A DNA stretch of 64,000 bases, taken from positions 2,918,900 through 2,982,899 of the forward strand of contig NZ_CP047593.1 of assembly GCF_009905215.1 (NCBI RefSeq). The letters are read 5' to 3'. The notes below the pieces were generated by a model. That model was not told the DNA's origin, searched no databases, and saw only the letters and a program-made list of their open reading frames with translations. Below are positions 26,855 through 61,295 of the stretch, one piece after another. A program made the translations under genes and the position numbers. The stretch is from Tichowtungia aerotolerans (GTDB lineage Bacteria > Verrucomicrobiota > Kiritimatiellia > Kiritimatiellales > Tichowtungiaceae). The first letter of the stretch is position 1. Each line of letters starts with the position of its first letter.

Positions 26855-27082
26855 TTTCCAACCCTTGGAAAAAATACTTCCAAGGTCTGGAAAAACGGCC
26901 AGCAATTTTTCCAATGCTCGGAAAAGGCAGCCGTAAAATTTCCAATCCTCGGAAAACCTGATCCGGAATTCTTCCGACCTCTGGAAAACTCAGAGCCGTT
27001 TTTTTCAACACTTGGAAAATTGTCGGGGTGCAGGCTCAGCCTGCTTCCCACCTTCGAGTGAAAACGTTCCAGCTCTCGGAAA
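26855..27082. repeat. Phased array of seven 17-bp dyads
   Basis: Imperfect palindromes of consensus YTTCCAAnnCTyGGAAA start at 26855, 26877, 26908, 26939, 26971, 27002 and 27066. Spacings are 22, 31, 31, 32, 31 and 64 (2 x 32) bp. The half-sites TTCC and GGAAA are kept while the centre varies, as for protein-binding sites on one helix face. It lies about 300 bp before the terminase genes. Two dyads with the same 31-bp spacing are at 35930 and 35961. Confidence 0.75.
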
Positions 27083-27356
27083 GCGCCCGCGCCCGCGGGT
27101 CGCGGAGGGAGGGGGTGCCCGAAGGGCGGGGGTGGGTGGCCATCGAAGATGCATCGACTGACTGGAACGTTGGAGTCAGGTCCGTTTCAGAATGTTTCAG
27201 CCGATCATCAATCGGCAATTTGAAAATCGGCAATGCCGATGGGTTCCCCCCCAGAGGGTCCCCCCTTCCGGGCGCGTCGCGGGCGCGCCGCGCCCTGTAT
27301 TATTCTGCATCAAGCAGGGTGGTTGAAACACCCTGAAACCTCAACCGGCACGCGCC

Positions 27357-27383
27357 GTTTGATTTTTGCCCTTAGGGCATGAA
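27357..27383 (+). promoter_or_regulatory. Hairpin-start motif GTTTGATTTTTGCCC…GGGCATG, copy 1
   Basis: GTTTGATTTTTGCCC, TTA, GGGC, ATG: a 4-bp GCCC/GGGC hairpin abuts the start codon of the terminase small-subunit-like gene (ATG 27379), and no Shine-Dalgarno is seen. Copies are at 28892-28917, 30077-30103 and, altered, 30587-30620. Confidence 0.6.
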
Positions 27384-27765
27384 ATTTAAACCCGGACAAT
27401 CAGGCAACCCCGCAGGCAGCAAAAAAGGGCCGCGTAGCGGGCGCATGCTCGCTCTCGCAGAGCTCGACTCCATGCTTAAAGACGCTGGCGTTATGGAAAC
27501 GCTTCGTGACGGTCTCCAGAAATCGCTGGAGCGCGACCCCGTTTGGTTCTTCCGCCGCATTATCATGCCGCTGCTTCCCAAGGAAGCAACGCTCTCACTT
27601 GAAAACAACGGAGAGTTCAAATGGAAACTCCTCACCGATACCGCCCCCATCGAGGACAGCTCAGAATACATCTCTCAAAAGCGCGATTCCGCATTGTCTG
27701 TACCGGACGACGGTTCGGGAAAACCCTCTGCCTTGCCCGCGAAGTCGCCGAGCGCGGAGTCTTAG
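27379..27765 (+). CDS. Probable small terminase-like protein (DUF5681-type N-terminus)
   Basis: 128 aa. The start MKFKPGQSGNPAGSKKGPRSGR is the FKPGQSGNPAGRPKG signature found at the N-terminus of phage proteins next to terminases (DUF5681). A helical stretch and an acidic, disordered tail follow. Its position immediately ahead of the large terminase supports a DNA-recognition role in packaging. The last ~100-145 bases also encode the N-terminus of the large terminase in another frame. The ATG directly follows the GCCC/GGGC hairpin motif. Confidence 0.6.
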   Translation: MKFKPGQSGNPAGSKKGPRSGRMLALAELDSMLKDAGVMETLRDGLQKSLERDPVWFFRRIIMPLLPKEATLSLENNGEFKWKLLTDTAPIEDSSEYISQKRDSALSVPDDGSGKPSALPAKSPSAES

Positions 27766-28892
27766 AGCCCGGAGATTACGGATGGATCGCGCCGACTTAC
27801 AACGTTGCCGACCGTGGGCGTGAGGCATTTCAGGAAGCCTTTGAGCCGGAGTTTCTGCGCTTCAGCGGACGGACTCCGTCACGCTTGGAATTCACCAGCC
27901 CGAATGGAACCAGCCGGGTCTGGTTTCTTTCCGCCGACAACCCCGAAAATATTCGTGGTTACGGCTTCAAAGGCATTGTCGTCGATGAGGCGGCGGTGAT
28001 TCCGCCGGATGTTTGGACATACATTCTGCGTCCGACCATCGCCCAGACGTTGGGGTGGGCCGTGTTTATCTCCACGCCCAAAGGACGCAATTGGTTTTAC
28101 GATCTGTTCACCCGCGGTGAAGATCCGTATGAGCCGGATTATGAATCCTTCCGGTTCCCCAGCATCGACAATCCGTTTTTTCCTGTCTCGGAATGGGAGG
28201 ATGCCAAACGGACACTGCCCGCCGATGTGTTCCAGCAGGAATACGAAGCGCAGTTCCTGGAAGACAGTGCCGGAGTTTTCCGCAACGTATCGTCCTGTTT
28301 GTTTCCTCAGAGGGCTTTAACCCGCGAAGACCGCGCGGGGGCGGTGGTCATCGGATGCGATGTGGCCAAGCACACCGATTTTACCGTGCTCGTCGCCATG
28401 AATCAGCGCACTGGGCGCTGCTTCGACATGGAACGCTTTAATCAGCTCGATTGGCCGATCCAGAAAGACCGCATCCTTGAGTTCGCCCGCAAATGGCGCG
28501 GGCGCATCATTCTGGATGCAACCGGCGCCGGCGATCCGATCTACGACGATCTGGCACGGCGGTATTCCAACATCGAACCGTTCAAGTTTACCGCTCAGTC
28601 CAAAGTGGAGCTGGTTCAGCGGCTGATTGTCGCCGTCGAACAGCAGAAGGTGAGCTGGCCGGAAGAGTGGCAGGTCTTAACGAACGAAATGCAGCGCTAC
28701 GAATACGAAATCTCTGCCCGCGGCCGATTGAGCTACAATGCCCCGAGCGGCTTCCACGATGATTGCGTCATGGCGCTCGCTCTCGCCAATCACCGCCGAT
28801 GGGAAACCCAGTCCGTCGGGCCGATGATCCCGCTTGCTCCGAAAGGACGCTTTTCACCGTTCGCCCGGCGGCCGCGCATACTGCCCGGCTGA
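27621..28892 (+). CDS. Terminase large subunit
   Basis: The packaging motor and nuclease, up to 423 aa. The ATPase half has Walker A CTGRRFGKT (about 27-35), Walker B GIVVDEAA (about 116-123) and the coupling region FISTPKGRNW (about 147-156). The nuclease half has VIGCDVAKHTDF (about 240-251), ILDATGAGDP (about 296-305) and FHDDCVMALAL (about 379-389), the three acidic RNase-H-like motifs. Walker A begins only ~78 nt after ATG 27621, before the upstream gene ends at 27765, so a real two-frame overlap of at least ~65 nt exists and up to 145 nt if this ATG is used. It moves DNA into the procapsid through the DUF935-type portal encoded next. Confidence 0.88.
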   Translation: METPHRYRPHRGQLRIHLSKARFRIVCTGRRFGKTLCLAREVAERGVLEPGDYGWIAPTYNVADRGREAFQEAFEPEFLRFSGRTPSRLEFTSPNGTSRVWFLSADNPENIRGYGFKGIVVDEAAVIPPDVWTYILRPTIAQTLGWAVFISTPKGRNWFYDLFTRGEDPYEPDYESFRFPSIDNPFFPVSEWEDAKRTLPADVFQQEYEAQFLEDSAGVFRNVSSCLFPQRALTREDRAGAVVIGCDVAKHTDFTVLVAMNQRTGRCFDMERFNQLDWPIQKDRILEFARKWRGRIILDATGAGDPIYDDLARRYSNIEPFKFTAQSKVELVQRLIVAVEQQKVSWPEEWQVLTNEMQRYEYEISARGRLSYNAPSGFHDDCVMALALANHRRWETQSVGPMIPLAPKGRFSPFARRPRILPG

Positions 28893-35929: not shown

Positions 35930-35977
35930 CTTCCAAGGGTTGGAAGAATACGGTAGAAGTTTTCCGATGTTTGGAAA
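35930..35977. promoter_or_regulatory. Two phased 17-bp dyads at the start of the AlbA-like gene
   Basis: CTTCCAAGGGTTGGAAG (35930-35946, perfect palindrome) and TTTCCGATGTTTGGAAA (35961-35977) start 31 bp apart, the same phase as the array at 26855-27082. The second contains the probable start codon ATG 35967. A bound protein would block transcription or translation start of this gene, so autoregulation or shared control is likely. Confidence 0.65.
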
Positions 35978-37775: not shown

Positions 37776-39064
37776 GGCTCTTCCCCAAAGACGGGGGCAA
37801 GGGCGAATTTTTATTAACCACACATCACAATTACTCTCAATCTGTAATTGCTGAAATTCCTAAAGCCGTAGGCTCTTCTCTGAATCAGCTCCATCTTGGT
37901 ATGGAAGCCTTCTGTAATGCCGTTGTTGCGGGTGAACCTCCACATCCGGGCGATCTCATCGCGCCAGGAACTCAATGTGGCCCCCAGCGTGCGCAACGGC
38001 TCGAATGGACTGTTGCGCAGCTGATCGATCCAGTACAGCAGGCGTGAGATTAGCGGCCGGCAGTCCTTTTGTGTTCGATGCTTCTGGTTGAGCAGTTCGC
38101 ATAGCTCCTCTTTGGCCTTGTACACCATACCAATCGCTGGGTTCTGCTCAAAATATCGCTCCAGACGGGCTTGCTGCTCCGGGCGCAGGTTTTCGCCTTT
38201 TCGGCGCATCAGCGATAGCAGCCCACGGTTTTTACGCCCTACAGGGTCAAGTAGCTTCCATGTGTCGAGGAAATGGCGGATGACGGTTCGCACCACATGG
38301 AACCGATCGCTGACGATCAATGCATTCGGGAAATACTTCCGAGCCAAGCTGCGATAGCTTGATGAAAGGTCGATACAGACCACCTGAACGCGCTCTCGGC
38401 CTTTCATTCGCATCAGAGCGCTATGCAGGGAGTGCTCCGATCGTCCCTTGGCTACCTCGAATATCCGATGCTTCTGCAGGTCACAGAAGGTCGTTGCGTA
38501 TCCCTGCTTCTTGGTGAAGAAGTGTTCATCAATACCCAGAACCGTCGGGCACAACCGGCTGGAAAACATCTTCTCTTTAAGCTCCAGATGGTCATGAAAC
38601 CACCGCTCGACAGTAGCGGATCCGATCCGCCGGGTGCGGTGCAGCTGTTGCTGGCTGATGCCGTCACGGTGATCCATAAAGATCTCCTGACGGAACATCT
38701 CGGTACTGCGCCGGTACGGCAGCAGGCCGGGCACTCGGGCCCTAAAATAGCGTCTGCAGTCTTCGCAGCGATATTTACGCAGCGTCAAGTACAGCCAGGT
38801 GTTTTTCGTTCCAATGCTTTCATGACGCAGCTTCCGTACAAATCGATCCTTAGTGCGCAGCTGCTCTGAACTGCATTGCGGACAGGCCACCGGGCCAACG
38901 TACTCGGCATGAATCATCACGCCACCGTGGCGGACTACGGAATGAACCTTGATGCCGGGGCCGACCAGGTCTATCTTCTCTTGGGGCATAGCGATCTCCT
39001 TTTTATTCCAACTGCTACCTTAGCAGTCAGGGATCGCCCTTGCCCCCGTCTTTGAGGAAGAGCC
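37776..39064 (-). mobile_element. ISL3-family insertion sequence, copy 1 (intact)
   Basis: 1289 bp bounded by imperfect ~30-bp inverted repeats (GGCTCTTCCCCAAAGACGGG at the left; the right end reads GGCTCTTCCTCAAAGACGGG on the other strand). It carries one transposase gene. The 8 bases on either side (GTAAAAGG and TTAGGCTT) do not match, so no target duplication is visible. A second copy in opposite orientation is at 60006-61295. Confidence 0.88.
37814..38989 (-). CDS. ISL3-family transposase
   Basis: 391 aa. Zinc-binding cysteines (CPQCSSEQ, then YRCEDCRRYF; about 36-82), an HTH (GISQQQLHRTRRIGSATVERWF), then the DDE core: LGIDEHFFTKKQGY (about 150-163), IVSDRFHVVRTV (about 222-233) and a C-terminal Glu region (ITEGFHTKMELIQRRAYGFRNF). 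Length and motif order are those of ISL3 transposases. GGAGAT precedes the ATG, four C residues follow it, and the frame is intact. It may also serve the copy at 60 kb, whose own start is out of frame. Confidence 0.9.
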   Translation of the reverse strand: MPQEKIDLVGPGIKVHSVVRHGGVMIHAEYVGPVACPQCSSEQLRTKDRFVRKLRHESIGTKNTWLYLTLRKYRCEDCRRYFRARVPGLLPYRRSTEMFRQEIFMDHRDGISQQQLHRTRRIGSATVERWFHDHLELKEKMFSSRLCPTVLGIDEHFFTKKQGYATTFCDLQKHRIFEVAKGRSEHSLHSALMRMKGRERVQVVCIDLSSSYRSLARKYFPNALIVSDRFHVVRTVIRHFLDTWKLLDPVGRKNRGLLSLMRRKGENLRPEQQARLERYFEQNPAIGMVYKAKEELCELLNQKHRTQKDCRPLISRLLYWIDQLRNSPFEPLRTLGATLSSWRDEIARMWRFTRNNGITEGFHTKMELIQRRAYGFRNFSNYRLRVIVMCG

Positions 39065-59803: not shown

Positions 59804-60005
59804 TTCCCCGCAGAGTTTTTTGTAGACGCGACCTTCGCGGGCGTTACAGCCCGGGCGTCGCGCTCCCCTTTGCGCTCTATGCGTTCTCTCGCGGCTAATC
59901 CAATCCGTGTCCATCCGTCTTCATCCGCGGTTGATCTTCTTTTTGTGCCTTTTTGTGGCCAATCAATTTCCGTGTCTTCGGTGTGTTCCGTGGTTCAGCC
60001 TTTCG

Positions 60006-61295
60006 GGCTCTTCCTCAAGGGCGGGGGCAAGGGCGATCCCTGACTGCTAAGGTAGCAGTTGGAATAAAAAGGAGATCGCTATGCCCCCAAGAGAAGATAG
60101 ACCTGGTCGGCCCCGGCATCAAGGTTCATTCCGTAGTCCGCCACGGTGGCGTGATGATTCATGCCGAGTACGTTGGCCCGGTGGCCTGTCCGCAATGCAG
60201 TTCAGAGCAGCTGCGCACTAAGGATCGATTTGTACGGAAGCTGCGTCATGAAAGCATTGGAACGAAAAACACCTGGCTGTACTTGACGCTGCGTAAATAT
60301 CGCTGCGAAGACTGCAGACGCTATTTTAGGGCCCGAGTGCCCGGCCTGCTGCCGTACCGGCGCAGTACCGAGATGTTCCGACAGGAGATCTTTATGGATC
60401 ACCGTGACGGCATCAGCCAGCAACAGCTGCACCGCACCCGGCGGATCGGATCCGCTACTGTCGAGCGGTGGTTTCATGACCATCTGGAGCTTAAAGAGAA
60501 GATGTTTTCCAGCCGGTTGTGCCCGACGGTTCTGGGTATTGATGAACACTTCTTCACCAAGAAGCAGGGATACGCAACGACCTTCTGTGACCTGCAGAAG
60601 CATCGGATATTCGAGGTAGCCAAGGGACGATCGGAGCACTCCCTGCATAGCGCTCTGATGCGAATGAAAGGCCGAGAGCGCGTTCAGGTGGTCTGTATCG
60701 ACCTTTCATCAAGCTATCGCAGCTTGGCTCGGAAGTATTTCCCGAATGCATTGATCGTCAGCGATCGGTTCCATGTGGTGCGAACCGTCATCCGCCATTT
60801 CCTCGACACATGGAAGCTACTTGACCCTGTAGGGCGTAAAAACCGTGGGCTGCTATCGCTGATGCGCCGAAAAGGCGAAAACCTGCGCCCGGAGCAGCAA
60901 GCCCGTCTGGAGCGATATTTTGAGCAGAACCCAGCGATTGGTATGGTGTACAAGGCCAAAGAGGAGCTATGCGAACTGCTCAACCAGAAGCATCGAACAC
61001 AAAAGGACTGCCGGCCGCTAATCTCACGCCTGCTGTACTGGATCGATCAGCTGCGCAACAGTCCATTCGAGCCGTTGCGCACGCTGGGGGCCACATTGAG
61101 TTCCTGGCGCGATGAGATCGCCCGGATGTGGAGGTTCACCCGCAACAACGGCATTACAGAAGGCTTCCATACCAAGATGGAGCTGATTCAAAGGAGAGCC
61201 TACGGCTTTAGGAATTTCAGCAATTACAGATTGAGAGTAATTGTGATGTGTGGTTAATAAAAATTCGCCCTTGCCCCCGTCTTTGGGGAAGAGCC
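60006..61295 (+). mobile_element. ISL3-family insertion sequence, copy 2 (start codon region altered)
   Basis: 1290 bp, one base longer than the copy at 37776-39064 and otherwise nearly identical, in opposite orientation. Ends: GGCTCTTCCTCAAGGGCGGG at the left, GGCTCTTCCCCAAAGACGGG inward from the right. The flanks CCTTTCG and GAAAGG are inverted, not direct, so no target duplication is seen. The right end is 7 bp from the CCA end of tRNA-Met. Confidence 0.88.
60081..61257 (+). pseudogene. ISL3-family transposase, copy 2, frameshifted directly after its start codon
   Basis: The start region reads ATGCCCCCAAGAG with five C, where copy 1 has ATGCCCCAAGAG with four. The ribosome site GGAGAT and ATG 60081 are kept, but the ATG is now out of frame with the other 390 codons, which are intact and identical in protein sequence. 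In-frame reading is possible only from upstream (ATG 59953, outside the element) or by a +1 slip on the C run. It is therefore probably silent or expressed weakly. Confidence 0.72.

What the first reader, a model, noticed from the sequence alone, without database searches (positions are those of the whole stretch)
26855..27082. Phased array of seven 17-bp dyads at ~31-32 bp spacing upstream of the terminase genes
Dyads of the form TTCCAAnnnnyGGAAA start at 26855, 26877, 26908, 26939, 26971, 27002 and 27066. Four successive gaps are 31-32 bp and the last is 64 bp, as if one site had been lost. That is three helical turns, so a protein could bind all on one face. The centres vary while the half-sites hold, which is what binding selection leaves. 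Candidate roles: packaging site bound by the small terminase (compare R sites of lambda cosB), origin iterons for the D5 primase, or a partition/centromere site.
Basis: partly seen in the sequence, partly recalled or inferred. Interest (0 to 1): 0.78.

Follow-up and report, generated by a model that had tools for sequence, protein, structure and literature searches.

The report
Genome-wide helically phased DNA binding sites
The seven sites upstream of this prophage's packaging genes are a dense cluster of a 15-letter palindrome that occurs over a thousand times across the host chromosome, spaced in whole turns of the DNA helix, so an unidentified host protein probably binds it and organises the chromosome, and several prophages carry the densest clusters.

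Summary
Seven 15-bp dyads (TTYCRRnnnYYGGAA) lie at the stated place, and an eighth has decayed inside the 64-bp gap (42+22). The same dyad occurs 1,146-1,223 times in the host's 3.88-Mb chromosome (reversed control 6-12), in genes and between them. Neighbouring sites sit 22, 31/32, 42, 52/53, 63, 73/74 or 83/84 bp apart, a period of 10.435 bp (95% 10.415-10.450). Phasing is equally strong inside genes (p~1e-19), holds to about 400 bp, and is gone beyond. Half-sites, not flanks, are conserved between species. The densest arrays seen in the host genome (6-10 sites) belong to four terminase-bearing prophages, upstream of TerS; two viral contigs have them at the same place, a third has lost it. 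Best explanation: binding sites of an unidentified host dimeric DNA-binding protein that works cooperatively on one face of the helix as an architectural factor, exploited by the prophages. The protein and the role are inferred. An element-specific site beside the array (GTTTCAN4GTTTCA / TGAAACN4TGAAAC) is a better packaging or origin candidate.

The parts
26856..26870 (.). dyad 1 TTCCAACCCTTGGAA
26878..26892 (.). dyad 2 TTCCAAGGTCTGGAA (22 bp from dyad 1)
26909..26923 (.). dyad 3 TTCCAATGCTCGGAA (+31)
26940..26954 (.). dyad 4 TTCCAATCCTCGGAA (+31)
26972..26986 (.). dyad 5 TTCCGACCTCTGGAA (+32)
27003..27017 (.). dyad 6 TTTCAACACTTGGAA (+31)
27045..27059 (.). decayed dyad TTCCCACCTTCGAGT (+42; +22 to the next), intact in sister prophage P3
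   Evidence: alignment, sequence
27067..27081 (.). dyad 7 TTCCAGCTCTCGGAA
27103..27339 (.). block conserved among related elements between array and TerS; holds GTTTCAGAATGTTTCA (27184-27199) and TGAAACACCCTGAAAC (27324-27339), an inverted pair of direct repeats 10 bp apart; element-specific
27379..27765 (+). probable small terminase subunit (DUF5681, below curated cut-off)
27621..28892 (+). large terminase subunit (Terminase_6N)
35931..35976 (.). phased pair of the same dyad (31 bp) at the start of the AlbA_2/Schlafen-like gene; the same pair lies in sister prophage P2
22505..23044 (.). three single dyads (22505, 22663, 23030) inside the DUF5906 (primase-like) gene

Best explanation
The array is a cluster of binding sites for a host-encoded dimeric (helix-turn-helix-like) DNA-binding protein, here called X. 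X recognises TTTCCAANSNTTGGAAA: its two half-sites are 11 bp apart, so both sit on one face of the helix. X binds neighbouring sites cooperatively, which demands that sites lie a whole number of turns apart (2, 3, 4 ... turns; coherence to about 400 bp), so dimers line up on one face and can bridge, loop or wrap the DNA. Over a thousand such sites run through coding and non-coding DNA of the chromosome, so X most likely acts as a sequence-specific nucleoid-structuring protein rather than a regulator of a set of genes. Related prophages carry the densest arrays a few hundred bp upstream of TerS, presumably to nucleate the host protein there (to silence the late operon, insulate it, or organise the element's DNA). 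Shown: sites, genome-wide occurrence, helical phasing, conservation of half-sites, clade spread, prophage arrays. Inferred: that a protein X exists, its fold, its cooperativity, and every statement about function.
For: Genome-wide: 1,223 matches, control 12; TTCCN7GGAA 465 in 1.264 Mb against 45-77 for most other spacers tried (0-15; the exception is spacer 0 with 154), flanks unconserved beyond 2-3 bp. Present in genes (261 sites, little frame bias) and between them (115), next to genes of every orientation. Phasing: Rayleigh 119.6 on 174 pairs at 18-150 bp; adjacent pairs inside genes p~1e-19; period 10.435 bp (10.415-10.450) with zero phase, control oligos R 0.03-0.06; R 0.76 against at most 0.18 in 2,000 jitter nulls, same without the window; coherence to 400 bp and none beyond. 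Selection: in a congener at 76% identity 17 of 27 sites stay in place; half-sites 0.84-0.98 identical, flanks about 0.72. Prophages: arrays of 7-10 in W, P2, P3, L181, L182 and 6 in a fourth terminase element.
Against: X is not identified; no binding, expression or contact data exist. Within one genus counts vary from 24 to 1,438, odd for an essential chromosome organiser. In the own genome intergenic sites favour 3' ends of genes and in G012 78% of sites are intergenic, so a role tied to transcription units is not excluded. In G087 the linkers between sites also look alike, closer to a dispersed repeat. Prophage L183 has lost the array, so it is dispensable for at least that element.
Confidence: 0.6

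Rival explanations
1. Transcription-unit boundary element: X bound at gene ends acts as a roadblock terminator or topological insulator; prophage arrays shield the late operon.
For: In G000 site density within 80 bp of stop codons in convergent gaps is 3.4-4.2 per kb against 0.9-2.0 in divergent gaps and about 0.24 in genes; few canonical intrinsic terminators were found by a crude scan. In G012 most sites are intergenic.
Against: Two thirds of the sites in G000 lie inside genes and are phased equally well. G012 shows no preference for convergent over divergent gaps. The dyad has no T-run after the stem, so it is not an intrinsic terminator.
Confidence: 0.2
2. Global transcription factor with a very large regulon; phasing reflects looping between operators.
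For: Sites also occur upstream of many genes; the single Lrp/AsnC gene has a site near -47 in three of five species of the genus. Lrp-family sites are known to lie two or three turns apart (PMC2995911).
Against: Density at 5' ends is lower than at 3' ends; no gene family recurs widely beside arrays across MAGs; most sites are in coding sequence.
Confidence: 0.12
3. Phage packaging, replication or partition site proper to the element.
For: Conserved place upstream of TerS in several elements; the longest arrays are in prophages.
Against: The dyad is host-wide, distant relatives of the terminase lack it, L183 lost it, and a separate element-specific repeat sits next to it.
Confidence: 0.06
4. 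Dispersed REP/BIME-like repeat spread by copying.
For: Palindromic, mostly intergenic in G012 and G087, with similar linkers in G087.
Against: In G000 and G012 linkers and flanks are unrelated, spacings are quantised in turns rather than one unit, and single sites lie in genes without a shared flank.
Confidence: 0.02

Closest known systems
Lrp/AsnC (feast/famine) regulators, e.g. Ss-LrpB
   Same: Dimers on palindromic sites aligned on one face, two or three turns apart, wrapping DNA (PMC2995911); 22 and 31/32 bp are among the commonest spacings here.
   Different: The one Lrp/AsnC ortholog of the host also occurs in motif-free genomes and has an acidic recognition helix; from general knowledge, Lrp-family targets are not known to number over a thousand exact sites in genes.
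Noc/NBS, SlmA/SBS and MatP/matS chromosome-organising sites
   Same: Short dyads scattered over a chromosome and bound by a dedicated protein.
   Different: From general knowledge those sites number tens and are regionally biased; here over a thousand, flat along the chromosome and phased. One full ParB-type HTH match per genome.
HIP1 (GCGATCGC) of cyanobacteria (PMC4390886, abstract seen)
   Same: Very abundant palindrome, patchy within a phylum.
   Different: HIP1 is an 8-bp word linked to methyltransferases; this is a gapped 15-bp dyad with helical phasing.
REP/BIME elements
   Same: Palindromes at gene ends.
   Different: No shared flanks in G000 or G012; present in coding sequence; helical quantisation of spacing.
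Lambda cosB R sites
   Same: Several sites next to terminase genes.
   Different: Not confined to the phage; bound, if at all, by a host protein.

Membership tests
Lrp/AsnC sites | Palindromic sites two or three turns apart on one face | tested here: met
   16 adjacent pairs at 2 turns and 47 at 3 turns, but also 27 at 4
Lrp/AsnC sites | Cognate Lrp gene whose presence or recognition helix tracks the motif | tested here: not met
   The six genomes without Lrp have low counts (3-15), but many genomes with Lrp lack the motif too; recognition helix acidic in positives and negatives alike
Lrp/AsnC sites | Binding by Lrp | not testable with these tools
   needs gel shift or ChIP
MatP/matS | Sites confined to the terminus region | tested here: not met
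   No ter-restricted pattern in site density over the chromosome
Noc/NBS | Second ParB-type gene and the Noc site | tested here: not met
   One full ParB HTH match per genome in all 47, with only weak extra matches in four; half-site spacing differs from the NBS known to me
REP/BIME | Copies share sequence beyond the palindrome | tested here: not met
   Flanks at background composition in G000 and diverse in G012; partly similar in G087
Lambda cosB-type packaging site | Sites restricted to the phage packaging region | tested here: not met
   Over a thousand host sites
Described Rfam RNA | Match to a curated RNA family | tested here: not met
   No match reaches its gathering score

The most novel reading that the evidence does not exclude
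Kiritimatiellia possess a sequence-specific chromatin protein that reads helical phase: a dimer bound at over a thousand dyads in genes and between them, lined up on one face over stretches up to about 400 bp to wrap or bridge the chromosome, and prophages carry dense arrays that recruit it to their late operon.
Probability: 0.4. Interest if true: 0.9.

Novelty: new variant of a known kind. Interest (0 to 1): 0.76.

Why it matters
A whole bacterial chromosome whose discrete 15-bp protein sites are locked in helical register, in coding sequence too, would be a natural record of the helical repeat and of cooperative DNA organisation in vivo. No description of it was found in the papers searched. 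It gives a direct route to a new nucleoid protein (affinity capture with this array) in a poorly studied bacterial class, and a case of prophages carrying dense arrays of a host-wide site.

Tried and rejected
Lrp/AsnC as X: gene present, but also in motif-free genomes, and its recognition helix is acidic. Noc-like second ParB: no full second copy. Recurrent gene beside arrays, or X's own promoter: no family recurs widely across MAGs, and no obvious DNA-binding gene stood out by eye among the genes listed beside arrays. Tandem duplication or copying: linkers unrelated in G000 and G012. General A-tract periodicity: AA/TT and single half-sites show no 10.4-bp signal of this size. Macrodomain pattern: none seen. 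Known RNA family: none above its gathering score. DNA relatives of the array in named phages or plasmids: none. Literature searches for the motif or for such a system in Kiritimatiellota: nothing found.

Full report
Check of the observation. The seven dyads are present. The conserved unit is 15 bp with an odd centre, TTCCAA-NSN-TTGGAA, extended by T and A on the outside. In the window the exact form TTCCN7GGAA occurs 22 times against 1.8 expected in shuffles. The 64-bp gap holds a decayed site, TTCCCACCTTCGAGT at 27045-27059, whose counterpart TTCCAACCTTCGGAT is intact in a sister prophage; it splits the gap into 42 and 22 bp.

The site is host-wide. The pattern TTYCRRNNNYYGGAA occurs 1,223 times in the 3.88-Mb genome, its reversed control 12 times. 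In a 1.264-Mb sample TTCCN7GGAA occurs 465 times; of the other spacers from 0 to 15, spacer 0 gives 154 and the rest 45-77. Sites lie in genes (261) and between genes (115), in every orientation of neighbouring genes, with only a slight frame bias. Flanks beyond two or three bases are at background, so these are not copies of a repeat.

Helical phasing. Distances between neighbouring sites fall on 22, 31/32, 42, 52/53, 63, 73/74, 83/84, 94 and 104 bp. The period is 10.435 bp (bootstrap 10.415-10.450) with zero phase, and control oligos show none. Adjacent pairs inside genes are phased with p about 1e-19. Jittering sites by up to 5 bp destroys it, and leaving out this window changes nothing. 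Adjacent sites 250-400 bp apart are still in phase (R 0.55, n 34); beyond 400 bp none are. A 10.4-bp period is that of double-stranded DNA, which argues for DNA read by a protein rather than an RNA structure (inference).

Selection. Against a congener at 76% identity, 17 of 27 unique sites are kept in place; half-sites are 84-98% identical, flanks about 72%, the centre 73-84%.

Spread. Counts per genome within the class range from 0 to 1,978 and are near background in most of the rest of the phylum, with small excesses in some families; even one genus spans 24 to 1,438. Perfect pairs within 6-48 bp number 499 in G012, 336 in G087, 217 in G065 and 90 in G032, with zero controls; nearly all those listed lie 30-32 bp apart. 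In G012, 82 of 92 sampled sites are paired at 29-33 bp and 78% are intergenic, without preference for convergent or divergent gaps. In G087 arrays of two to seven dyads have partly similar linkers.

Prophages. A related element at C1:2576001 carries 10 sites and one at C1:703581 carries 9; a fourth terminase element near C1:3392600 carries 6. Exact triples of the dyad are listed for the whole genome; the non-prophage ones seen there are runs of three, and one search shows one group of four. Viral contigs L181 and L182 carry 10 and 7 sites upstream of TerS; L183 has one; five more distant relatives have none. Where present in the five aligned elements, the last dyad lies roughly 280-390 bp upstream of TerS. 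Between array and TerS lies a block conserved among the elements with GTTTCAN4GTTTCA and TGAAACN4TGAAAC; in 1.336 Mb of host sample the latter occurs only three times, upstream of TerS in three prophages. That block is a better candidate for a packaging, origin or late-promoter site than the dyads.

Mechanism. Half-sites 11 bp apart suit a helix-turn-helix dimer; whole-turn spacing with flexible numbers of turns suits cooperative contacts between dimers on one face. Lrp-family proteins work this way at two or three turns (PMC2995911), so the system works like them; membership is not supported, because the single Lrp/AsnC ortholog also occurs in motif-free genomes and its recognition helix is acidic. 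X is unknown. In the own genome intergenic sites favour the 80 bp after stop codons (3.4-4.2 per kb in convergent gaps against 0.9-2.0 in divergent ones), so a boundary or roadblock role is the main rival.

Limits. No experiment bears on X.

Noticed in passing
window 27184-27199 and 27324-27339: GTTTCAN4GTTTCA and TGAAACN4TGAAAC, an inverted pair of direct repeats one turn apart, conserved upstream of TerS in related elements and rare elsewhere in the host sample; candidate packaging, origin or late-promoter site.
   Followed up: partly
L316 45-2203 (G000:C1:3390700-3394700): A fourth terminase-bearing element in the same chromosome, with a six-site array upstream of its terminase.
   Followed up: partly
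window 16252-37391: The element has primase-like, TerS, TerL, portal, protease and head genes and one tail-fibre-like hit, but no further tail genes were recognised; it may be a short or capsid-forming satellite.
   Followed up: no
window 27030-27044; L191 7618; L033 17694; L034 11639: A small hairpin GCAGGCTNAGCCTGC sits inside or beside arrays of the dyad in two prophages and also occurs elsewhere in the host.
   Followed up: no
G000 intergenic gaps: Dyads favour the first 80 bp after stop codons.
   Followed up: partly
G087 (L291, L301): Arrays of two to seven dyads with partly similar linkers (GCCGAAAATTTT), more repeat-like than in other genomes.
   Followed up: partly
window 37814-38989 and 59953-61257: Two ISL3-family transposase genes, one just beyond the prophage end.
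   Followed up: no
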